A DNA stretch of 64,000 bases from an uncultured Bacteroidales bacterium (GTDB lineage: Bacteria; Bacteroidota; Bacteroidia; Bacteroidales; F082), in assembly GCA_900317055.1 (NCBI GenBank), contig ONFF01000019.1, positions 1 to 64,000 on the forward strand, given 5' to 3'. Under the pieces are notes generated by a model. That model did no database searches. It was given only the letters and a program-made list of their open reading frames with translations, and had not been told where the DNA came from. Below are positions 44,613 through 53,911 of this stretch, one piece after another (positions within the stretch are counted from its first letter, which is position 1; each line of letters starts with the position of its first letter). The position numbers and the translations under genes are program-made.

Positions 44613-46565
44613 ATGATTTCAATCCAAAACCTGAGTATGCACTTTACCGGTGAAGACCTCTTCACCGACATTTCCTTTTTGATTCGCGAGAAGGACCGCA
44701 TCGGCTTGGTGGGAAAAAACGGCGCAGGAAAAACCACCCTGCTGAAACTCATCTGCGGATTGGAACAGCCTTCAAAGGGCGATGTCATTATTCCTCAAGG
44801 CGTTACCATAGGTTATTTGCCTCAAGAAAAGAATGTCAACAGCACGAAAACCGTTTTGGATGAAGCGCTTTCAGCCTTCGATGAATACCATCAATTGGAA
44901 CGCGATGTGGAAAAGTTGCAGCAGGAATTAGCCGAACGCACCGACTACGAGAGCCCTCAATACGAGAAACTTATTGTCAAGTTGAACAATCTGAACGACC
45001 GTTTAGCTTTGCTTGGTGGCAACAGCATCGAAGGCGAGGCGGAACGGATTTTGGTCGGCTTGGGCTTTGGTCACGACGACATGATGCGCCCCATGCGCGA
45101 GTTCAGCAACGGCTGGCAGATGCGCGTGGAACTGGCCAAGATCCTGCTGAAAAAACCCAATTTGCTCCTCCTCGACGAGCCCACAAACCACCTCGACATC
45201 GAGTCCATCCAATGGCTCGAAGGCTTCCTGAAAGCCTATTACGGCGCCATCCTGATGGTCTCGCACGACCGCGCCTTCTTGGACAATATTACTATCCGCA
45301 CGGTGGAGATTTCCAACGGCAAGATTTACGACTACAAGGTGCCGTATTCCGATTATGTCGGCCTGCGTGAAGAGCGCGTCGACATGCAACGCTCGGCCTA
45401 CGAGAACCAGCAGCGCGAAATCAAGAACATCGAGGCGTTCATCGAGCGTTTTCGCTACAAGGCGACCAAGGCCAAGCAGGTGCAGAGCCGCGTGAAGATG
45501 CTTGAGAAGATGGATGAGATTGTGGTGGATGACATCGACAGCACAGCCATCCATTTCAAGTTCCCGCCTGCACCACATTCGGGCAAGGTTACACTAGAGC
45601 TGAATCATGTTGGCAAGTCTTACGGCGACCAAGTCATCCTCAAGGACATCAATCTGTTGATTCCGAGAGGTGAGAAAATAGCCTTTGTGGGACGCAACGG
45701 CGAAGGCAAGTCCACGCTTTCAAAAATCATCTGTGGCGTGCTCGACCATGAAGGCGAGGTGAAACTGGGTCACGAGGTAAAGATTGGCTATTATGCCCAA
45801 AACCAGCAGGACATGCTCGACATGAACAAGACCGTCTTCGAGACCTTGGATGATGTGGCCGTTGGCGACATGCGCTTGAAAGTGAAGGCTCTGCTCGGTT
45901 CCTTCCTTTTCCGTGGCGACGACATCGACAAGAAGGTGAAAGTGCTCTCGGGTGGTGAGAAAGCCCGCCTTTCCTTGGCCAAGATGCTGCTCTTCCCGAC
46001 CAACTTGCTAGTCCTCGACGAGCCCACCAACCACTTGGACATGCTCTCCAAAGACATCTTGAAGAACGCCTTGATCCAATATGACGGCACACTGATCATC
46101 GTCTCCCACGACCGTGACTTCCTGCAAGGTCTGACCAACAAGGTCTACGAGTTCCGCAAGCCCAACATCAAGGAATACATCGGCGACATTTACGACTTCT
46201 TGGAGCAGAAGAATCTCAGCCACTTGAAGGAGTTGGAGATTGCTGCCAAACAAACCAAAGTCCAAGAAGTCATACCACAGTCACAGAATAAGATTAACTA
46301 CGAGCGCAAGAAGCAGATTGATGCCAAGTTGCGCAAAGTCGATAAAGAGATCCAACGCCTCGAAGAAGCCATCGGCAAATTGGAAGCCGAATTGGCCGAG
46401 CAAGATGCCATCATGGCCCATCCCGACGAGCATCCTGACATCAAGATTGACAACGACTGGTATTGGGCCTATGGACAGAAAAAAGAACAACTCCAAGCCC
46501 TAATGGACGATTGGGGAGAGAAGCAGATAGAACGGGAGGAAGTTTTGGCGGAATATGAGAAATAA
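44613..46565 (+). CDS. ABC-F family ATPase (translation factor-like)
   Basis: A 650-residue duplicated ABC protein without membrane segments. NBD1 has the Walker A GLVGKNGAGKTTLLK (residues about 31-45) and NBD2 the Walker A VGRNGEGKSTL. The signature LSGGEKARLSLAKMLL and Walker B LLVLDEPTNHLD are clear in the second half, with LLLLDEPTNHLD in the first. A charged coiled coil at the C-terminus (about 560-650) resembles the Uup/EttA family, which rescues or tunes ribosomes. A diverged copy of its last ~24 codons lies 1.8 kb downstream, beyond the ATPase unit. Confidence 0.9.
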   Translation: MISIQNLSMHFTGEDLFTDISFLIREKDRIGLVGKNGAGKTTLLKLICGLEQPSKGDVIIPQGVTIGYLPQEKNVNSTKTVLDEALSAFDEYHQLERDVEKLQQELAERTDYESPQYEKLIVKLNNLNDRLALLGGNSIEGEAERILVGLGFGHDDMMRPMREFSNGWQMRVELAKILLKKPNLLLLDEPTNHLDIESIQWLEGFLKAYYGAILMVSHDRAFLDNITIRTVEISNGKIYDYKVPYSDYVGLREERVDMQRSAYENQQREIKNIEAFIERFRYKATKAKQVQSRVKMLEKMDEIVVDDIDSTAIHFKFPPAPHSGKVTLELNHVGKSYGDQVILKDINLLIPRGEKIAFVGRNGEGKSTLSKIICGVLDHEGEVKLGHEVKIGYYAQNQQDMLDMNKTVFETLDDVAVGDMRLKVKALLGSFLFRGDDIDKKVKVLSGGEKARLSLAKMLLFPTNLLVLDEPTNHLDMLSKDILKNALIQYDGTLIIVSHDRDFLQGLTNKVYEFRKPNIKEYIGDIYDFLEQKNLSHLKELEIAAKQTKVQEVIPQSQNKINYERKKQIDAKLRKVDKEIQRLEEAIGKLEAELAEQDAIMAHPDEHPDIKIDNDWYWAYGQKKEQLQALMDDWGEKQIEREEVLAEYEK

Positions 46566-46570
46566 GATGC

Positions 46571-46682
46571 GATAAAATGCTGTTAAGTGGAAATTTTTCT
46601 TACATAACTGCATTTTATCTGCAAAAAATGTTTGATATCGTGCTGCTAAGTCGATTTTTTAGGGACTTAACAGCACACTATC
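46571..46682. repeat. Left paired-hairpin end of ATPase unit 1
   Basis: Two palindromes (46571-46619 and 46634-46682) are separated by a 14-nt spacer TGCAAAAAATGTTT. The first has GATAAAATGC/GCATTTTATC outer arms; the second contains GTGCTG(C/T)TAAGTC. A matching pair lies on the other side of the ATPase gene. Confidence 0.75.
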
Positions 46683-48102
46683 GTGATTCTTTGAACAAAT
46701 CATCCATCGTCACTTCCGATTGGATGTTGTTCCAATAAGCATTATGAGCGACACCGTATGTGGTAATCATGGTAAGGTGGATGGCTTTTCGGGTTTTGGT
46801 AACTTCCTGAAACACAGATTTCCGTCTCCGAAGTTTGTCATCTTCTTCCTTGTCAATACGATAAACATCATCCGAAAACTTCATTTCACAAAGATTGATG
46901 ACACCATCGTTACGGTCAAAAAGCAAGTCGATTTGTACCCCTTCATGTTCTTTGGTGGCTTCGACATGCCATGATTGGGCATTGCTGATCACTCCAGCGA
47001 TACCTAATGCAGACTTGATTTGAGGCAAATGCCACAAACACACTCGCTCAAAAGCCAGTCCTGCCCAGACTGTATGGATTGAAGTAGACAAATTATTGGT
47101 CCAGAAATGGTTGTCGTGATGGTAGTTGTTCTCGATATAGCGGAAGTAGAACAAGGTGAAATGATCCATAAGTTGATAAATCGCCTCGCGTTTTATCTTG
47201 CCAATGACCTGATACTTTCGAATGAAATTGCATTTCTCTAACTCCTCGGTCGCCTGTATGAAAACCTTATTGTCGTCAAGTCCAGTGCTTTCGAGCAGCG
47301 CTTTTCGGGTCATGCCCGCTTTCTTGGTTGCCAAGGCAGTAACGATGGCAATGTAAGGTGCAGGTCGCTTGAACAAGGAGGCATAAAGAGCATTGAATTC
47401 ATCAGCAAGGCGTCCGTCCTCTTCAAAAAACAAACGGTCAATATTCTGTGCCAGGCTCTCACTGCGTCGCAAGAGGCTCCAATAATAGGGTATGCCGCCC
47501 AAGATCATATAGGTTTCCACAAGGTCTTTTCTTGTCATGCTGAGTTTGAGTGACTGGGCTAATTGCTCACATTCGTTGAGACAGAAAGGCTGGAGGTAAA
47601 TCTTGTCAGTCAATCGATTGTGCAATCCGCCATGGTCGCGGATGATTTTCTTGATAATCCATGAGGTGGCACTGCCGCAAACGACAAGGACGATATCTTT
47701 ACGCATATTGGCCCAACCATTCCAAAAATGCTCCAAGGCACTGATGAGCTGTGACTTTGGGGTATCCATCCACGGCAGCTCATCCAAAAAAACCACCTTT
47801 TTCTTATCGGGAGATTGTTCTAATACCATCTCAAGTAAGTGGAAGGCCTCAAACCAAGTGCGTGGCATCTTGCAGCGCTTCAATCCAGCCTTGCGCAGCG
47901 ATTCGCGAAACTCGGTCAGTTGTTCTTTTTTCGGGGCGTTGGCTACACCCGTGTGATAAAATGCGAAATGGTTCTCAAAGGTCTCTTTGATAAGGTAGGT
48001 CTTGCCCACGCGTCGCCTCCCATAAACGGCGCAGAATTGCGATTCGTCTTTCTCCAACAGTTCAAGGAGTTCTCTTCTTTCTTCGTTGCGTCCAATCAGC
48101 AT
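46678..48102 (-). CDS. AAA ATPase with PD-(D/E)XK-like (DUF234) C-terminus
   Basis: A 474-residue protein of the archaeal-type AAA ATPase family (PF01637-like). The start is the ATG at 48102 (MLIGRNEERREL); an upstream in-frame codon is a TTG. Walker A is GRRRVGKT (28-35) and Walker B is VVFLDELPWMD (near 105). A winged-helix-like middle follows. The C-terminus resembles DUF234, with a nuclease-like core: D392 (QIDLLFD), then E406-x-K408 (CEMK). The gene is convergent with ABC-F and enclosed by paired hairpins. The function of this family is unknown; defence or element maintenance are possible. Confidence 0.78.
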   Translation of the reverse strand: MLIGRNEERRELLELLEKDESQFCAVYGRRRVGKTYLIKETFENHFAFYHTGVANAPKKEQLTEFRESLRKAGLKRCKMPRTWFEAFHLLEMVLEQSPDKKKVVFLDELPWMDTPKSQLISALEHFWNGWANMRKDIVLVVCGSATSWIIKKIIRDHGGLHNRLTDKIYLQPFCLNECEQLAQSLKLSMTRKDLVETYMILGGIPYYWSLLRRSESLAQNIDRLFFEEDGRLADEFNALYASLFKRPAPYIAIVTALATKKAGMTRKALLESTGLDDNKVFIQATEELEKCNFIRKYQVIGKIKREAIYQLMDHFTLFYFRYIENNYHHDNHFWTNNLSTSIHTVWAGLAFERVCLWHLPQIKSALGIAGVISNAQSWHVEATKEHEGVQIDLLFDRNDGVINLCEMKFSDDVYRIDKEEDDKLRRRKSVFQEVTKTRKAIHLTMITTYGVAHNAYWNNIQSEVTMDDLFKESR

Positions 48103-48147
48103 GGCGTTATTTTTAGATTGATATTGCAAAGAAACGCATTTTTTTTC

Positions 48148-48258
48148 GATTATCTGCTGCTAAGTCAATATTTTTTATACTTAACAGCGATTAATCTGAA
48201 ACTTTTGTTTGATAACATGCTGTTAAGTCTATTTTTCGATGACTTAGCAGCAGATTAT
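48148..48258. repeat. Right paired-hairpin end of ATPase unit 1
   Basis: Two palindromes (48148-48196 and 48211-48258) with core TGCTG(C/T)TAAGTC are separated by a 14-nt spacer TGAAACTTTTGTTT, matching the pair at the left end. Confidence 0.75.
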
Positions 48259-48277
48259 ATACAATGAATAAAAGGGG

Positions 48278-48354
48278 AAAGGACTCAAACCCTAATGGAT
48301 GATTGGGGAGAGAAGCAGATAGAACGGGAGGAAGTAATGGCAGAGTACAATTGA
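48278..48354 (+). pseudogene. Second, diverged copy of the ABC-F C-terminal tail
   Basis: In one frame this reads LMDDWGEKQIEREEVMAEYN and then a stop, nearly the same as the end of the ABC-F protein (LMDDWGEKQIEREEVLAEYEK). The stretch 48290-48335 matches 46498-46543 with one mismatch; beyond it, several codons differ synonymously, so it is not a fresh copy. It has no start and is a gene remnant. Confidence 0.75.
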
Positions 48355-48480
48355 GTGCAAACATGCCATTTCTTTATTTGATAAAAATTGATAATCCGCA
48401 AACGGCTTTGAAAATCAACGCTTTAAAAATGTAATAATCTTATTTTCAATTATTTATGAAAAACTGTGGATTTTTTTTCC

Positions 48481-48488
48481 TACCTTTG
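48481..48488 (+). promoter_or_regulatory. Candidate promoter (TACCTTTG) for the 103-residue protein
   Basis: TACCTTTGC with a 50-nt leader before the ATG at 48539 matches TAnnTTTG. Confidence 0.5.
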
Positions 48489-48538
48489 CGTTCGATTTTG
48501 AAAACGAACAACCAACAACAGTATAAATTCAACGGATT

Positions 48539-48850
48539 ATGTACCAAATTTTTAAAGACCAACTCGAAAAGTCAAAACTCATCATTACCGGCGTAAAGAG
48601 GAACCAACGCCTCGGTCGCGACGCCGGCGTGGAAGAAAGCGTGATCCAGAAGATGGAGGAAGACTGCAAGCGTTTGGAAGCCATTTCTGCCGAAATCGAC
48701 AAGCTTCAAGAAGAGCTTCGCAAGAAGAGCGATGAAGCCCATGCCGCCCTTAACACCTTAAAAAGCAGGACACAAATCGTGAAAAAATCCATCAAATCGA
48801 AGTATGACCAAACTTGGTGGACCAAGTTCGGCATCCCTGATAGGAGATAA
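48539..48850 (+). CDS. Small coiled-coil protein of unknown function
   Basis: A 103-residue, soluble, strongly charged protein. Residues about 35-85 are a predicted coiled coil (MEEDCKRLEAISAEIDKLQE), and the C-terminus is basic and aromatic (KYDQTWWTKFGIPDRR). It has a consensus promoter and a terminator, so it is likely a real monocistronic gene. No family was recognised; a role as a structural or nucleic-acid-associated protein is possible. Confidence 0.65.
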   Translation: MYQIFKDQLEKSKLIITGVKRNQRLGRDAGVEESVIQKMEEDCKRLEAISAEIDKLQEELRKKSDEAHAALNTLKSRTQIVKKSIKSKYDQTWWTKFGIPDRR

Positions 48851-48867
48851 AACATTATTCTAGAACC

Positions 48868-50052
48868 TTATTGAGCCGCTTCTGACGAGGCGGCTTTTTT
48901 CGTGCGAATGATTACCTTCTCCTCCCCTTTCAAGGTGGTGGCGAAAAGATAAACGATGTCTCCATCCTTGATTTTCAAAATCCTTCGCAGCTCGGCCACC
49001 GAAAGCGGAAAATTGCGCACAGCGATGCTGGCCTTTTCGACACCCTGAAGCAAGGTCTGGTTCACTTTTTTATTGTATGGAGCCCAATCCACAACCTCGA
49101 AGATTCGGCCTGGAAAATCAGTAATCAACTGATTAGATGTATATAAATTACTGTTTTTGTGTAGTTTACAAACACCAAAGCGTTCCGTCAACAATTTGAA
49201 GCATCCTGCTTTCATCACAGCGGGATTGGGTTCGTAAAGGTAGTTCAAAATGCCGTCTGCAAGTCGGCTTGGGCACTGGCGTTCTTCCTCCTGCGTGAAA
49301 CGGACTTCAGGCTGGGAAGTCATCAAATTGACGCACACAAATTGAGGTTCGCCTTGGTAATCGCGTTCAATAATGAAAACCAGTTCCTTGCACTCGTTGG
49401 CGACGGCCACCACATGCACCTTTTTCACATGGTGCAATTCCTCCAAAGCCTTACTGATATCGAGCATCGGAGACAGCTTAATCATCACTTTTTGTGCCTT
49501 TTGTAGAAGCTCATCTTGTAATGTCGATACATCAGGTGTACAATCGCTGATGGAGACTGTCTTGCGACCATGCTCATCTCTTCGGGCAGGGTCAATGAAG
49601 ATGCAATCCTTGGGTTCACAGTGAGCTATATACTCTTCTGCAGTTTCATTCCAAACTTTGACATTAGCCTTCAAAACCTCAAAATTGTGCATCGCCAAGT
49701 CGCAGAGCTCTGTCTGTCGCTCCACATAGTCGGCTTGTTGGAATTGTTGTGCAATAAAACAGGTGTCGATGCCCAAACCGCCCGTCAAGTCGACAAAGGT
49801 TTGGCCTTGTAATAAACCTGCTTTGTATTGTGCACTGGCCTCCGAAGAGCATTGCTCAATGGAGAGGTGTGCTGGGAAAAGCAGGTCTTCATTCTCGCTC
49901 CACGAAGGCACTTTCTTACGAAGCAACTGCCGTGCTTCGATTTGTCGCAGAGCCAATGAAACATCAGTGCCGACGGGCGCCTTTTTCAAGGCGAGCGTCG
50001 GCACATCAGCATTCAGGTTTTCCCTGATGTATTGTCTAGTGATATCGTTCAA
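48868..50052 (-). CDS. PG1098-like SAM-dependent methyltransferase with THUMP-like domain
   Basis: A 394-residue protein. The SAM site is VDLTGGLGIDT (near residue 87). DPARRDEHGRK (near 155) resembles the DPPR-type motif of RNA methyltransferases, and the C-terminal third carries a ferredoxin-like/THUMP-like region as in the P. gingivalis PG1098 structure family. Only a TTG start (50052) fits the frame upstream of the conserved core; no ATG occurs in frame for a long stretch. The TTG lies 2 nt after the upstream pseudouridine synthase stop, suggesting coupling and an RNA-modification role. Confidence 0.78.
   Translation of the reverse strand: MNDITRQYIRENLNADVPTLALKKAPVGTDVSLALRQIEARQLLRKKVPSWSENEDLLFPAHLSIEQCSSEASAQYKAGLLQGQTFVDLTGGLGIDTCFIAQQFQQADYVERQTELCDLAMHNFEVLKANVKVWNETAEEYIAHCEPKDCIFIDPARRDEHGRKTVSISDCTPDVSTLQDELLQKAQKVMIKLSPMLDISKALEELHHVKKVHVVAVANECKELVFIIERDYQGEPQFVCVNLMTSQPEVRFTQEEERQCPSRLADGILNYLYEPNPAVMKAGCFKLLTERFGVCKLHKNSNLYTSNQLITDFPGRIFEVVDWAPYNKKVNQTLLQGVEKASIAVRNFPLSVAELRRILKIKDGDIVYLFATTLKGEEKVIIRTKKAASSEAAQ
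48874..48900 (+). terminator. Terminator of the small coiled-coil gene, inside the convergent gene's 3' end
   Basis: AGCCGC and GCGGCT form a stem followed by T6. The stem lies within the last codons of the PG1098-like gene on the other strand, so the two genes share this DNA. Confidence 0.7.
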
Positions 50053-50054
50053 GT

Positions 50055-51509
50055 TCAGATCTTCTTCAGATTGTTCACCTCAAGGTCGGTGAGGAAACGC
50101 CACTCGCCACGAGGCAGTCTGTACTTGTCGAGACCAGCGAACATCACGCGGTCGAGCTTGGTCACTTCGTAGCCGAGGTGTTCGAAAATACGGCGCACGA
50201 TGCGGTTGCGGCCCGAATGGAGTTCGATGCCAATGCTCTTCTTGCTGTCGTCGTCCTGGTCGTAAGCAATGTTGTCGGCAGCGATGGGGCCATCGTCCAA
50301 CTCAATGCCTTCAGAAATGCGAAGCATATCGTTTTTGGTCAAGGGCTTGTTCAGGATGACATGATAGAGCTTCGGGATCTCACTGCTCGGATGGGTCAGC
50401 TTCTTGGCCAAGTCACCATCGTTGGTGAACAGCAACAGTCCAGTGGTCTGTTTGTCGAGACGACCAACAGGATAAACGCGCTCCGGGCAAGCATTCTTGA
50501 CGAGTTCCATCACGGTGTCACGCTCATATGGATCGTCAGAAGTAGTGATATAGCCTTTAGGCTTGTTCAGCAGGATGTAACGAAGCTTCTCGCGATTGAG
50601 GGTCTGTCCTCCGTAAACCACCTTGTCTTCGGTCTTCACCTTATAGCCCATTGTGGTAATCACTTCACCATTCACCTCCACGCAGCCGGCCTTGATGAGG
50701 TCGTCGGCTTCGCGGCGTGAGCAGATGCCACAGTCGGCCAAATATTTGTTCAAACGGATTTCGCCAGTGGCTTTCGGACGATCGTACAGCGGGTCTTTTT
50801 CGCGGACATAGCCTTTGCGGCCACGACGCGGCTCTTCTTCATCCTCAAAACCGCGACGCGGGCGGTCGTCAAAGCGGCGATTGCCACCACGCGGTCTGTC
50901 ATCATCGAATCTACGACGAGGGTGCTCCTCATCGCCAAAACGACGCCTTGGACGGTCTTCATCAAAACGGCGACGGGGTCTATCGTCGTCATGGAAACGG
51001 CGCTCACGCGGCTTGTCGTCATCGAAGCGACGGCGCGGACGCTCGTCATCGTCGAATCTGCGGCGAGGACGGTCGTCAAAACGGCGTTCGCCACGAGGTT
51101 TGTCATCATCAAAACGGCGGCGAGGTCTGTCTTCGTCGTCAAACCTGCGACGCGGACGGTCGTCGTCGTGGAAACGGCGTTCACGCGGCTTGTCGTCATC
51201 AAAACGACGGCGTGGACGCTCATCATCGTCGAATCTACGGCGTGGGCGGTCGTCACGACGGCTTTCACCGTGTTCGTCATCGAAGCGGCGGCGAGGACGG
51301 TCACCAAACTTTCGGTCGCCGAACCTGCGGTCACCACGGTTGTCATCAAATCGGCGCTCACCTCTCGGCTTGTCGCCAAAACTTCTCTCTTCGCGTCCTT
51401 CCTCGTCACCGTCGCGGTGATAGAACTTGAAGGACCTTCTCTGCTGGAATTCTTCATCAGCAGGCTTTCTGGTGCGCGGACGCTTGCCAGATCTTTCGTT
51501 TTCAGTCAT
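50055..51509 (-). CDS. RsuA/RluB-family pseudouridine synthase with long Arg/Asp-rich N-terminal extension
   Basis: A 484-residue protein. Residues 1-245 are a low-complexity extension made of many RRRFDD(D/E)R-type repeats. Residues about 251-300 are an S4 RNA-binding domain (RLNKYLADCGICSRREADDL). From about 305 the catalytic domain follows, with the Asp at GRLDKQTTGLLLF (D352) and the RNRIVRRIFEHLGY signature. It should make one uridine in rRNA into pseudouridine. Such repeat extensions occur in Bacteroidota homologues and probably bind RNA or drive condensates; that part is inference. Confidence 0.9.
   Translation of the reverse strand: MTENERSGKRPRTRKPADEEFQQRRSFKFYHRDGDEEGREERSFGDKPRGERRFDDNRGDRRFGDRKFGDRPRRRFDDEHGESRRDDRPRRRFDDDERPRRRFDDDKPRERRFHDDDRPRRRFDDEDRPRRRFDDDKPRGERRFDDRPRRRFDDDERPRRRFDDDKPRERRFHDDDRPRRRFDEDRPRRRFGDEEHPRRRFDDDRPRGGNRRFDDRPRRGFEDEEEPRRGRKGYVREKDPLYDRPKATGEIRLNKYLADCGICSRREADDLIKAGCVEVNGEVITTMGYKVKTEDKVVYGGQTLNREKLRYILLNKPKGYITTSDDPYERDTVMELVKNACPERVYPVGRLDKQTTGLLLFTNDGDLAKKLTHPSSEIPKLYHVILNKPLTKNDMLRISEGIELDDGPIAADNIAYDQDDDSKKSIGIELHSGRNRIVRRIFEHLGYEVTKLDRVMFAGLDKYRLPRGEWRFLTDLEVNNLKKI
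50820..51420. repeat. Coding tandem repeats in the pseudouridine synthase N-terminus
   Basis: About 600 bp of imperfect, repeated units encode RRRFDDD/E-R and related blocks. The repeats make length changes between strains likely. The same DNA is open in several other frames, which are not genes. Confidence 0.75.
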
Positions 51510-51537
51510 TTATAAATATGTATTAGTGATAAAAAAT

Positions 51538-51556
51538 CCATTCCGTCGCGGAATGG
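51538..51556 (-). promoter_or_regulatory. Leader hairpin ahead of the pseudouridine synthase
   Basis: CCATTCCG and CGGAATGG form an 8-bp perfect stem with a 3-nt loop, between the TACTTTTG element and the ATG. It would lie in the 5' leader of the mRNA. Confidence 0.4.
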
Positions 51557-51560
51557 GCGG

Positions 51561-51568
51561 CAAAAGTA
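51561..51568 (-). promoter_or_regulatory. Candidate promoter of the pseudouridine synthase gene (TACTTTTG)
   Basis: TACTTTTGC on the reverse strand, about 52 nt upstream of the start, matches TAnnTTTG. Confidence 0.5.
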
Positions 51569-51670
51569 CGAATAATTTAGGAATGTGCCATTGTTTTAGG
51601 TGAATAATTTGTTTTTCTGGATATTACTTCATATTGAGAAACACTTAGAAAAACCATTGTTCCAAATCTG

Positions 51671-51703
51671 GTTCACAACTTTGTGGACCACAAGTTTGTG
51701 AAC
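51671..51703. repeat. Left palindrome of ATPase unit 2
   Basis: Nested palindrome with outer arms GTTCACAA/TTGTGAAC and inner TTGTGG-A-CCACAA. Its first 23 nt are identical to the start of the right palindrome (52917-52964). Confidence 0.8.
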
Positions 51704-51726
51704 TAATGAAAAAAGTTGTATCTTTG
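51695..51726 (+). promoter_or_regulatory. ATPase 2 promoter using the palindrome as its -33 (TTTG / 20 nt / TATCTTTG)
   Basis: TTTG at 51695-51698 is the right arm of the palindrome, and TATCTTTG at 51719-51726 is the -7, with a 20-nt spacer. The unit end would thus carry part of the gene's promoter. Confidence 0.5.
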
Positions 51727-51752
51727 CAGCGAATATTAAGGAATTCGTCATC

Positions 51753-52877
51753 ATGAAAAAAACATTTATCTATGGCGTAGCGGTTGAAGGTACCAACTTT
51801 ACAGACCGTAAAAAAGAGACAAGACGCCTCAAACAGGATTTTGAAAACGGGCAGAATGTGATACTTATCTCTCCTCGAAGAATGGGCAAGACTTCTCTTG
51901 TGAGGAAAGTTCAAACTCTAGTTGACAAAGACATCGTGACGGTTTACATGGACATCTACGACTGTCGCAACGAATATGAATTCTATAACAAATTTGCAGC
52001 CGAGCTCCTTAAACAAACCTCTGGCAAAGCCGAAGCCGTCATGAAAAACATCAAGGAATTCCTGGTCAGATTGTCACCTACCATTTCCTTCGGTCCCGAC
52101 CCCAACAACGAGTTTTCCCTATCTCTAGGTATTACATCCAAAAGCTATTCTCCAGAAGAAATCCTACAATTACCCCAACGTATGGCCGAAAAAATGGGCA
52201 AGCACATTGTAGTTTGCATTGACGAGTTCCAACAGATTGGCGAGTTCCCAGACTCACTGAAAGTACAGAAAAAAATGCGCAGCATATGGCAACTGCAAAG
52301 CAATGCTTCCTATTGCCTGTTTGGAAGCAAAAAGCATCTGCTTGCCAATCTCTTTCAAAGCAAGAAGATGCCATTTTATCAATTTGGCGACATTCTGTTT
52401 CTACAACCTATCCCTATAGAAGACTGGATTCCTTTTATCAGCCAGAAGTTCGAGGAAAAAAACATGAGCATTTCCGATGCCATCATTGAAAAAATCTGCT
52501 CTACAGTGCAAAGCCAATCCTCATATGTTCAACAACTGGCATGGAATGTCATGCTCAACACCACAAAAAAAGCGGATGAAGCCGCATTGGAAACCGCCAT
52601 TGAAGACCTGCTGAATCAAAACTCACTGCTGTTTCTGCAGCAAATCGAGAATCTGACTGCCTACCAAATGAACTTCCTGAAAGCCGTCGCAAAAGGCGTA
52701 CACACCGACTTCACCTCCAAAGAGGTGCTATCCACCTATGATTTAGGGTCAAAATCCAATATTTCAAGGATCAAGACCGTATTGACACAAAAAGAGTTGA
52801 TAGAAAAAACGCCCAACGGAATCGTGTTCTCTGACCCTGTTTTTGAGCTCTGGTTTACCAAAGAATGGTGTAAATAA
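51753..52877 (+). CDS. AAA ATPase (PF01637-like), no nuclease domain
   Basis: A 374-residue ATPase. Walker A is PRRMGKTS (41-48) and Walker B is IVVCIDEFQQ (152-161). The Arg-rich GSKKHLL sensor-like segment is near 205. The C-terminal part is a winged helix (VLSTYDLGSKSNISRIKTVLTQKEL). It shares the ATPase type of unit 1 but lacks its PD-(D/E)XK-like C-terminus. It is bounded by its own palindromes and convergent with the GSCFA gene. The biological role is unknown. Confidence 0.8.
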   Translation: MKKTFIYGVAVEGTNFTDRKKETRRLKQDFENGQNVILISPRRMGKTSLVRKVQTLVDKDIVTVYMDIYDCRNEYEFYNKFAAELLKQTSGKAEAVMKNIKEFLVRLSPTISFGPDPNNEFSLSLGITSKSYSPEEILQLPQRMAEKMGKHIVVCIDEFQQIGEFPDSLKVQKKMRSIWQLQSNASYCLFGSKKHLLANLFQSKKMPFYQFGDILFLQPIPIEDWIPFISQKFEEKNMSISDAIIEKICSTVQSQSSYVQQLAWNVMLNTTKKADEAALETAIEDLLNQNSLLFLQQIENLTAYQMNFLKAVAKGVHTDFTSKEVLSTYDLGSKSNISRIKTVLTQKELIEKTPNGIVFSDPVFELWFTKEWCK

Positions 52878-52916
52878 CAAATTGTTATTTAAGTAATTAC
52901 AAATTATATATTAAAA

Positions 52917-52964
52917 GTTCACAACTTTGTGGACCACAAATTTGTAGACCACAAATTTGTGAAC
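52917..52964. repeat. Right palindrome of ATPase unit 2
   Basis: A 48-nt palindromic element beginning GTTCACAACTTTGTGG and ending ATTTGTGAAC; it overlaps the GSCFA stop codon by one base. It may also serve as a terminator for both convergent genes. Confidence 0.8.
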
Positions 52965-53911
52965 TAAATATAATCAAGACAAATCCTCGGAAAAGACCTC
53001 TTCAATTCGCTAATTTTCTCCTCTTTCAGCATTTCAAACCTCTTGAAAGCCACACTTTCAGGAAACAGAGGCTTATGCTGCAGCATCTGCTTCAACTCGG
53101 CGGCAGCCTTCATGGCAGGCTTTTCTTTAGGGTCAATGGCAAAGTCCGTAAAGCGTTCCCAAATGTATCGAACCGTCTGCTCAGTGGGATGCACCATGTC
53201 TTCTTTGTAGAAACGATAGTCGCGCAACTCATCCAAGAGGATTTCGTAAGCGGGGAAATAATGAGCGTTATCGAATTGTTTGCAAACTTGGTCAACCGCC
53301 AAAAGCAATGCAGCCTTGCTCAGTTGGTTCTCATGCAGGCCATCCTTTAAGTGGCGCAAGGGCGACACAGTGAAAATGAATTGTTTGTTGGGATGGGCTT
53401 GCAGCATCTTAGTAAGACAAACCTCCGATTGTTCTACAGAGAGAAACTCCCTGTCAAATTGTCGGGCAGGCAGCTTATGGCAATTAGAGACCACCAGACG
53501 GGTTTCTTTATGCCTAAATACCCACGAGGTGCCCAGACTAATAACAACCCATTTGGCCTGCAAAAACCGCTCATGCGCCTCCATTAAGCCATTATTGACC
53601 GTTTCCAAAAGCTTCTGTTCGTCGGACTGCCAAAACGCCGTATTGTGGCTAAAAGTGCAGTACTGCCCCTCGCCTACCGAAATCACCTCTTTATGTGTGA
53701 ATGGACTGCCACTACCTAGTCGTTCAACCGACTGGGCAATGCTAGCGGGGTTGTAGAGCACGCCAAAGGGATTCACCAAGGCATCGAAGCCAAAGCCACG
53801 GCAAATGCCGCCCACCTCATCAGCAAAGCAGGAACCTAGGAAGAGCAGACCGTCGCCGTAGGAGATGGCCTGCTCTAAAGGTTGAATCTTTATTTCTGTC
53901 TGAAAAATCAT
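52964..53911 (-). CDS. GSCFA-domain protein (SGNH-like esterase)
   Basis: A 315-residue protein carrying the name-giving GSCFAD motif (residues 27-32), where the Ser is the expected nucleophile of the SGNH-like fold. TVSPLRHLKDG (near 180) and a C-terminal MVHPTEQTVRYIW motif, with an Asp-x-x-His-like pair (D-M-V-H), suit such hydrolases. It may deacetylate or deacylate an envelope polymer. It overlaps the trxB stop (ATGA), so the two genes are cotranscribed. Confidence 0.85.
   Translation of the reverse strand: MIFQTEIKIQPLEQAISYGDGLLFLGSCFADEVGGICRGFGFDALVNPFGVLYNPASIAQSVERLGSGSPFTHKEVISVGEGQYCTFSHNTAFWQSDEQKLLETVNNGLMEAHERFLQAKWVVISLGTSWVFRHKETRLVVSNCHKLPARQFDREFLSVEQSEVCLTKMLQAHPNKQFIFTVSPLRHLKDGLHENQLSKAALLLAVDQVCKQFDNAHYFPAYEILLDELRDYRFYKEDMVHPTEQTVRYIWERFTDFAIDPKEKPAMKAAAELKQMLQHKPLFPESVAFKRFEMLKEEKISELKRSFPRICLDYI

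What the first reader, a model, noticed from the sequence alone, without database searches (positions are those of the whole stretch)
46571..48258. AAA ATPase/nuclease-like gene bounded by paired hairpins: a candidate undescribed mobile unit
The ATPase gene at 46678-48102 sits between two copies of a double-hairpin end: 46571-46682 and 48148-48258. Each end has two palindromes of about 49 bp separated by a 14-nt spacer (TG.AA....TGTTT), with a shared core TGCTG(C/T)TAAGTC. The unit starts 5 nt after the ABC-F stop. There is no transposase. Hairpin-ended units mobilised in trans (as for IS200/IS605-type or REP/RAYT elements) are known, but I know of none built around an AAA ATPase with a DUF234-like end. 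Seen directly: the repeats and gene. Inferred: mobility.
Basis: partly seen in the sequence, partly recalled or inferred. Interest (0 to 1): 0.85.

Follow-up and report, generated by a model that had tools for sequence, protein, structure and literature searches.

The report
Palindrome-bounded ATPase genes that come and go
A family of ATPase genes, so far listed as untested anti-virus defence candidates, turns out in these bacteria often to be framed by matched palindromes of its own, to sit at different places in related genomes, and at several empty sites to have left one palindrome behind, so these genes look like a new kind of very small mobile element.

Summary
In detail: 46571-48258 is one AAA+ ATPase/PD-(D/E)XK-type gene between two matched palindrome pairs. 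It is one case of many. In the genus, 46 of 64 homologous loci I picked have matching sequence before and after the gene, palindromic on both sides in 40; ends match within a locus and differ between ATPase lineages. A second ATPase in the window (51669-52965, no nuclease domain seen) is framed likewise. Of 116 control ORFs 14 score: all 12 genes of these two unit types and 2 others. Mobility is supported: the unit is present, absent, or beside another gene in relatives; copies 95-96% identical stop matching at the palindrome edge; sites filled in one genome hold one palindrome and no ATPase in another, in three cases read as a left/right recombinant. Stem mismatches show no strand preference (G-T 66, A-C 59), which suggests DNA sites rather than RNA hairpins. 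The protein is PDC-S27, an untested defence candidate. How units enter new sites, and whether their own protein does it, is not shown.

The parts
46571..46619 (.). outer left palindrome of unit A (about 18-bp arms)
46634..46682 (.). inner left palindrome of unit A (overlaps the last codons and stop of the ATPase gene)
46678..48102 (-). unit A gene: AAA+ ATPase (PF01637) with C-terminal PD-(D/E)XK-type motif (E352, D392, E406-x-K408); PADLOC PDC-S27
48148..48196 (.). inner right palindrome of unit A
48211..48258 (.). outer right palindrome of unit A
46494..46555 (+). 3' end of the ABC-F gene, left copy of a 62-bp direct repeat that straddles unit A
   Evidence: 90% identity
48286..48347 (+). 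second copy of the ABC-F 3' end beyond unit A; not an intact gene; scar
51669..51705 (.). left palindrome of unit C (TTCACAA..TTGTGG-A-CCACAA..TTGTGAA)
51753..52877 (+). unit C gene: 374-aa AAA+ ATPase (PF01637); model ends in a winged-helix-like region, no nuclease domain seen
52916..52965 (.). right palindrome of unit C (one repeat longer); overlaps the stop codon of the neighbouring SGNH-type gene

Best explanation
The feature is a palindrome-bounded single-gene element. Shown by comparison: each such unit is one AAA+ ATPase gene plus a lineage-specific palindrome (single or double) at both ends; units are present or absent between the same neighbours, occupy different sites in related genomes, and at several sites the ATPase is missing and one palindrome remains, in the cases read made of the outer half of the left and the outer half of the right one. 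Inferred: the palindrome is the double-stranded (or cruciform) DNA site bound by the unit's own AAA+/winged-helix protein, which brings the two ends together. Recombination between the ends releases the gene and leaves one palindrome; the reverse, or an attack on an intergenic site, inserts it. In the PDC-S27-type family the fused PD-(D/E)XK domain would cut at the palindrome; in the second family, where I see no nuclease, a host nuclease or resolvase would have to. Which enzyme makes the insertion is not shown.
For: Matching flanks: 46 of 64 genus loci exceed the 99th percentile of mismatched pairs (own median 83.5, mismatched median 18), and resemblance between different loci is near background below 60% protein identity; in 40 of the 46 both matched stretches are palindromic by one automatic test. 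Control: 14 of 116 ORFs score 34 or more, 12 of them the 12 A and C genes of those stretches. Presence/absence between the same neighbours: SppA|ABC-F with 16-169 bp between in 6 genomes, SppA|C|ABC-F in G086, SppA|C|..|MFFQ|ABC-F in G068, the same plus A in G084, G069 (and G014 as far as its contig shows); ABC-F|greA-like without A in G057, G070, G037, with A in G000, G083 and G061. Second site: A between the MFFQ gene and leuS in G056. Sharp edges: C in G084 vs G086 95.95% identical up to +94; G056 vs G084 95.6% from -93. Solo palindromes: G071, G089, G065 at the SppA|X site; G088 where G089:C81 is filled (79% over 402 bp and 86.8% over 1137 bp); PDC-S27-type solos in G089 (left flank 96.6% identical to filled G060 over 815 bp), G088, G004. 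DNA rather than RNA: G-T 66 vs A-C 59. Folds resemble Orc1/Cdc6, RuvB and archaeal AAA+ ATPases; weak profile hit to TnsC (E 0.003).
Against: No excision, insertion, binding or cutting has been observed. Solo palindromes could come from ordinary homologous recombination between 45-60 bp repeats. No target-site duplication was established (inconclusive). 18 of 64 genus loci lack matched flanks; of five own-genome matches the two weak ones (25-26% identity) showed no palindromes. In the wider set only 27 of 87 loci match, 15 of the 27 with palindromes on both sides. In the second family 18 of 28 loci reach a score of 40, but among the 11 below 60% identity only 2 do, and these two do not look like unit ends. 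One class has upstream palindromes only, and homology ends at the stop codon. No free-standing solo of the window's own palindrome was seen; one A-type palindrome lies at a hybrid unit in G056. In G089 the SppA side of the solo is a 229-bp SppA piece with full SppA further on, so that site is also rearranged. All genomes are one per species and many are incomplete.
Confidence: 0.58

Rival explanations
1. Stationary candidate defence genes (PDC-S27 and kin) whose palindromes are operators or self-recognition sites for the encoded protein. They move only passively, by horizontal transfer and homologous recombination, and are lost by recombination between the flanking repeats.
For: PADLOC match PDC-S27 at E 4.3e-204; papers count it among candidate defence systems. 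One class has its palindrome only upstream, next to the promoter region, with a further half-site near the start (read). The ABC-F 3' end is duplicated around unit A, and other loci have longer repeats outside the palindromes, such as L102 132 bp, L168 71 bp, L217 118 bp, as imported fragments would leave.
Against: An operator need not recur at the far end of the gene, yet matching ends are found in 46 of 64 loci. Near-identical copies stop matching at the outer palindrome edge.
Confidence: 0.27
2. Units are mobilised in trans by a Y1 transposase (RAYT-like) or a tyrosine recombinase coded elsewhere, the palindromes being its substrates.
For: Y1 genes in 70 of 99 genomes, 6 matches in the own genome; 6 integrase-family matches in the own genome. 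A solo palindrome and a palindrome at each end of a filled site look like attB and attL/attR.
Against: G026 (93% complete) has no Y1 match but has a PDC-S27-type gene with matching ends, L115. One enzyme would have to recognise many unrelated palindromes, each tied to one ATPase lineage. Stem mismatches show no preference for one strand (indirect).
Confidence: 0.1
3. The palindromes are ordinary transcription terminators or other RNA hairpins.
For: They lie in intergenic spaces and fold as stems of about 18 bp. The terminator scan only allows loops of 3-8 nt, so it could not have found most of them.
Against: No Rfam match in 46000-53200; mismatches G-T 66, A-C 59; upstream and downstream copies match each other and differ between lineages.
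Confidence: 0.04

Closest known systems
PDC-S27 (PADLOC phage defence candidate; ATPase fused to PD-(D/E)XK)
   Same: The window protein and its two strong own-genome homologues match PDC-S27 over nearly their whole length; papers PMC12988326 and PMC13356809 (found passages seen) treat it as an untested single-gene defence candidate.
   Different: Nothing in the passages seen mentions palindromic ends, solo palindromes or mobility of the gene. The second family in the window matches PDC-S01/S27 models only weakly.
IS200/IS605 and REP/RAYT elements (features recalled)
   Same: Hairpin-like ends, intergenic positions.
   Different: No Y1 gene inside; palindromes are diverse and tied to the ATPase lineage; no strand preference in stem mismatches.
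Integron gene cassettes (features recalled)
   Same: One gene per unit and a palindromic site.
   Different: Palindromes at both ends of single units; units are scattered; integron integrases were not tested.
Solo LTR formation (analogy, recalled)
   Same: Recombination between end repeats leaves one repeat at the old site.
   Different: Ends are palindromes of about 37 to 112 bp; the unit codes an ATPase only.
Tn7-like TnsC and TnsA
   Same: AAA+ regulator (weak profile hit to VchTnsC, E 0.003) and a PD-(D/E)XK-type nuclease, here in one chain.
   Different: No TnsB-type transposase in the unit; the match covers the ATPase part only.

Membership tests
PDC-S27 | full-length match to the PADLOC model | tested here: met
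   E 4.3e-204, residues 2-470 of 474
PDC-S27 | anti-phage activity | not testable with these tools
   validation described as pending for most PDCs in PMC12988326 (passages)
IS200/IS605 or RAYT element | encodes a Y1/HUH transposase | tested here: not met
   unit A holds one long gene, and Pfam gives ATPase domains only
IS200/IS605 or RAYT element | could be moved in trans by Y1 in the same genome | tested here: inconclusive
   Y1 in 70 of 99 genomes; none found in G026, which has a unit with matching ends
IS200/IS605 or RAYT element | single-stranded hairpin as substrate | tested here: inconclusive
   no excess of G-T over A-C in stems, 66 vs 59; indirect
classical DDE insertion sequence or MITE | terminal inverted repeats with target-site duplication | tested here: inconclusive
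   ends are palindromes in direct repeat; duplication test not clean
integron cassette | attC array served by an integron integrase | not tested
   only the phage-integrase family was counted, in the own genome
Tn7-like element | TnsB transposase and Tn7 ends | tested here: not met
   one long gene per unit, ATPase domains only, in units A and C; Tn7 ends not searched

The most novel reading that the evidence does not exclude
A self-contained class of mobile DNA whose only gene is an Orc1/Cdc6- or RuvB-like AAA+/winged-helix protein that recognises its own palindrome at both ends. Cruciform extrusion and cutting (by the fused PD-(D/E)XK domain, or by a host junction resolvase in the family without a visible nuclease) free the unit and leave one palindrome.
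Probability: 0.3. Interest if true: 0.92.

Novelty: categorically new. Interest (0 to 1): 0.8.

Why it matters
PMC12988326 (passages) counts 3503 PDC-S27 genes in archaea and 4562 in bacteria as candidate defence systems, and PMC13356809 (passages) reports 2865 in rumen genomes. If many are palindrome-bounded mobile units, defence inventories are inflated, and the question of why such families expand so strongly gets a testable answer. It would also be a transposon-like element without a known transposase, with a protein-palindrome code that can be read by comparing lineages.

Tried and rejected
Terminator/RNA reading: judged unlikely; the terminator scan is no test, since it only allows loops of 3-8 nt. 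Target-site duplication: not established; shared 7-mers next to the ends were 10 of 44 against a shuffled mean of 3.6, but the compared stretches include palindrome letters. Long direct repeats outside the palindromes as regular target duplications: not supported, since lengths vary from about 36 to 224 bp and only some loci have them (32 of 152 loci offered had any repeat in that screen, several of them palindrome copies). Source of the ABC-F scar by identity to relatives: not decisive. Plasmid search: no match. The 170-aa gene that scored in the control does so through a duplicated neighbour. L083 carries a palindrome of the L033 type beside its own, but no second ATPase was found in the 3.8 kb held. 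Paper searches for mobile, hairpin- or palindrome-bounded ATPase units and for PDC-S27 and its discovery listed nothing that by title or abstract start describes palindrome ends; only listings and found passages were seen (passages of PMC1913061, PMC12988326, PMC13356809), and preprints and most subscription papers are not held.

Full report
1. What is there. Two palindromes lie on each side of one ATPase gene, with a 14-nt spacer of the same form on both sides, and the two ends are a 112-nt direct repeat of 73% identity. The strict palindrome pattern is found in 18 of 99 genomes of the genus and in none for the reversed-pattern control; the listed places coincide with unit A or contig-cut pieces of it. 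The gene product has Walker A GRRRVGKT and Walker B motifs and a C-terminal E/D/ExK set; R29-R31, G33-K34-T35, D107-E108, E352, E406 and K408 are invariant and D392 is at 0.98 in the 61 stop-free proteins aligned. AlphaFold gives mean pLDDT 88.5; Foldseek's top solved relatives are an archaeal ATPase (2qen), Apaf-1 and Orc1/Cdc6 proteins. PADLOC calls it PDC-S27.

2. It is general, with limits. The own genome has five matches at E <= 0.001: three strong ones, each with its own palindrome on both sides, and two weak ones (25-26% identity) without. I examined 64 genus loci, 60 of them chosen by me for spread from the capped list. In 46 of 64 the stretches before and after the gene match above the 99th percentile of mismatched pairs; 18 do not. 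In 40 of the 46 both matched stretches are palindromic by one automatic test. Between different loci, matching is frequent above 80% protein identity (about 78% of pairs) and rare below 60% (about 2% or less), while the two ends of one locus still agree. As a control, 116 ORFs of the window and eight related stretches gave 14 scores of 34 or more: the 12 A and C genes that those stretches hold and two copies of a gene with a duplicated neighbour. In a wider set of 80 genome loci and viral-contig loci, 27 of 87 usable loci match, 15 of the 27 with palindromes on both sides. The phenomenon is thus strongest in this genus.

3. A second family in the same window. The ATPase at 51753-52877 is framed at both ends by CCACAA-NN-TTGTGG-type palindromes. 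I see no nuclease domain; its model (pLDDT 81.3, pTM 0.61) resembles 2qen, 2fna and Orc/Cdc6 proteins. 57 of 99 genomes have a homologue at E <= 1e-40. Matching ends hold for close relatives: 18 of 28 loci score 40 or more, but only 2 of the 11 loci below 60% identity do, and those two do not look like unit ends. So for this family the rule is shown only within one clade.

4. Gain, loss and relocation. A near-full unit A (at least 1630 of 1721 bases) is in 16 of 99 genomes including the own; 15 of 16 beside ABC-F, one (G056) between the MFFQ gene and leuS. At the ABC-F locus six genomes read SppA|ABC-F with 16-169 bp between. G086 has unit C there. G068 has C, then a toxin-like island ending in the MFFQ gene. 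G084 and G069 have the same plus unit A, and G014 shows C (cut by the contig end), the MFFQ gene, A and ABC-F. G056 has a third ATPase unit there, whose ABC-F end carries one A-type palindrome. In G068 and G071 the ABC-F stop and the MFFQ start are a few bases apart with no palindrome, consistent with palindrome and gene arriving (or leaving) together. The window's arrangement ABC-F|A|scar|greA-like..rlu|C|SGNH is matched by ABC-F|greA-like..rlu..SGNH without either unit in G057 and G070 and, with other DNA between rlu and SGNH, in G037; the spacers differ by more than the units, so these are not base-exact empty sites. In G074 about 8 kb of other DNA lies between A and greA-like. Copies of C that are 95-96% identical share one flank (1.5 kb in one pair, 200 bp in the other) and stop matching on the other side at, or within a few bases of, the outer palindrome edge. 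Among 102 locus pairs of 74% or more nucleotide identity, 83 share the unit only, 8 both flanks, 11 one flank; many pairs are not independent, and at lower identity flanks may simply be unalignable.

5. Solo palindromes. A pattern search for the C palindrome hit 18 of 99 genomes. Of eight stretches read for an ATPase, seven have none and one is a contig end (one of the seven, in G080, keeps the last bases of the gene). G071, G089 and G065 have SppA|one palindrome|X where G068, G084 and G069 have SppA|palindrome-ATPase-palindrome|X; in G089 the SppA side is a 229-bp piece, with full SppA about 1.8 kb further on. G088 has one palindrome where G089:C81 is filled, with both flanks homologous. In G088 and G071 the left part of the solo equals the outer half of a filled left palindrome and the right part the outer half of a filled right one. 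For G066 no filled counterpart was sought. The PDC-S27 family shows the same: of 15 places hit in 10 of 99 genomes, three (G089, G088, G004) have no ATPase in the 3 kb held. The G089 solo has a left flank 96.6% identical over 815 bp to filled G060, a right flank matching filled G055 (79% over 936 bp) and G060 (88% over 183 bp, palindrome included), and reads as a left/right recombinant; G088 matches on both flanks at 77-82%; for G004 only the left flank matched. In G084:C42 a solo lies at the SGNH 3' end where the own genome has unit C, but the far side holds other DNA before rlu. No free-standing solo of the window's A palindrome was found.

6. Nature of the palindrome. No Rfam family matches. 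The terminator scan allows loops of 3-8 nt only and is no test. This fits a double-stranded site or a cruciform.

7. Mechanism. Shown by comparison: matched ends, presence/absence, relocation, solo palindromes. Inferred: the encoded AAA+/winged-helix protein binds the palindromes; recombination between ends frees the gene. Not known: the insertion step, and the cutting enzyme in the second family. Homologous recombination alone can explain solo formation; Y1 or tyrosine recombinases could act in trans. Duplicated pieces outside the palindromes (62 bp of ABC-F here; 71-132 bp in L168, L217, L197, L169, L102) remain unexplained and suggest that some copies entered as part of larger imported fragments.

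8. Literature. PDC-S27 appears in two papers; I saw the found passages only. They describe ATPases fused to PD-(D/E)XK domains, abundant in archaea and rumen genomes, with validation pending for most PDCs. Passages of PMC1913061 link another AAA+/PD-(D/E)XK fusion (DUF1703) to PF01637. My searches listed no description of palindrome-bounded ATPase units. Features of IS200/IS605, RAYT, integrons, solo LTRs and Tn7 used for comparison are recalled; so are the names SppA, leuS, folK, MFFQ-type, greA-like, trm, rlu and SGNH given to neighbours from reading their sequences.

Noticed in passing
L265:4046-4558 and neighbours; L143:1-4575; L142: The island between unit C and unit A (X..MFFQ gene) codes a 170-aa protein with an LHH-type nuclease-like end and small neighbours, resembling an orphan toxin/immunity island (name from reading, not from a search); a neighbouring short gene is duplicated around it.
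   Followed up: partly
L141:1577-3073 (G056): A hybrid ATPase unit: body and upstream palindromes of another lineage, but the last part of the gene and the ABC-F-side palindrome of type A, as if two units had recombined inside the gene.
   Followed up: partly
L162, L163, L172, L173, L175, L181, L186, L193: A class with upstream palindrome(s) only (often CAGCGGAAA..TTTCCGCTG) and a further half-site near the start; homology between members ends near the stop codon. L186 and L193 are two copies in one assembly, 90% identical, sharing the unit only.
   Followed up: partly
L083 (G074), 161-211 nt upstream of the gene: A palindrome of the type that bounds another unit (own-genome L033) stands beside this unit's own; no second ATPase in the stretch held, so possibly another solo.
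   Followed up: partly
L102, L168, L217, L197, L169, L085: Direct repeats of 71-224 bp of neighbouring gene ends or spacer outside the palindromes, as with the ABC-F scar in the window.
   Followed up: partly
window:51538-51556: Terminator-like palindrome (CCATTCCGCGACGGAATGG) upstream of the rlu-type gene, also in unit-free G057; ordinary.
   Followed up: no
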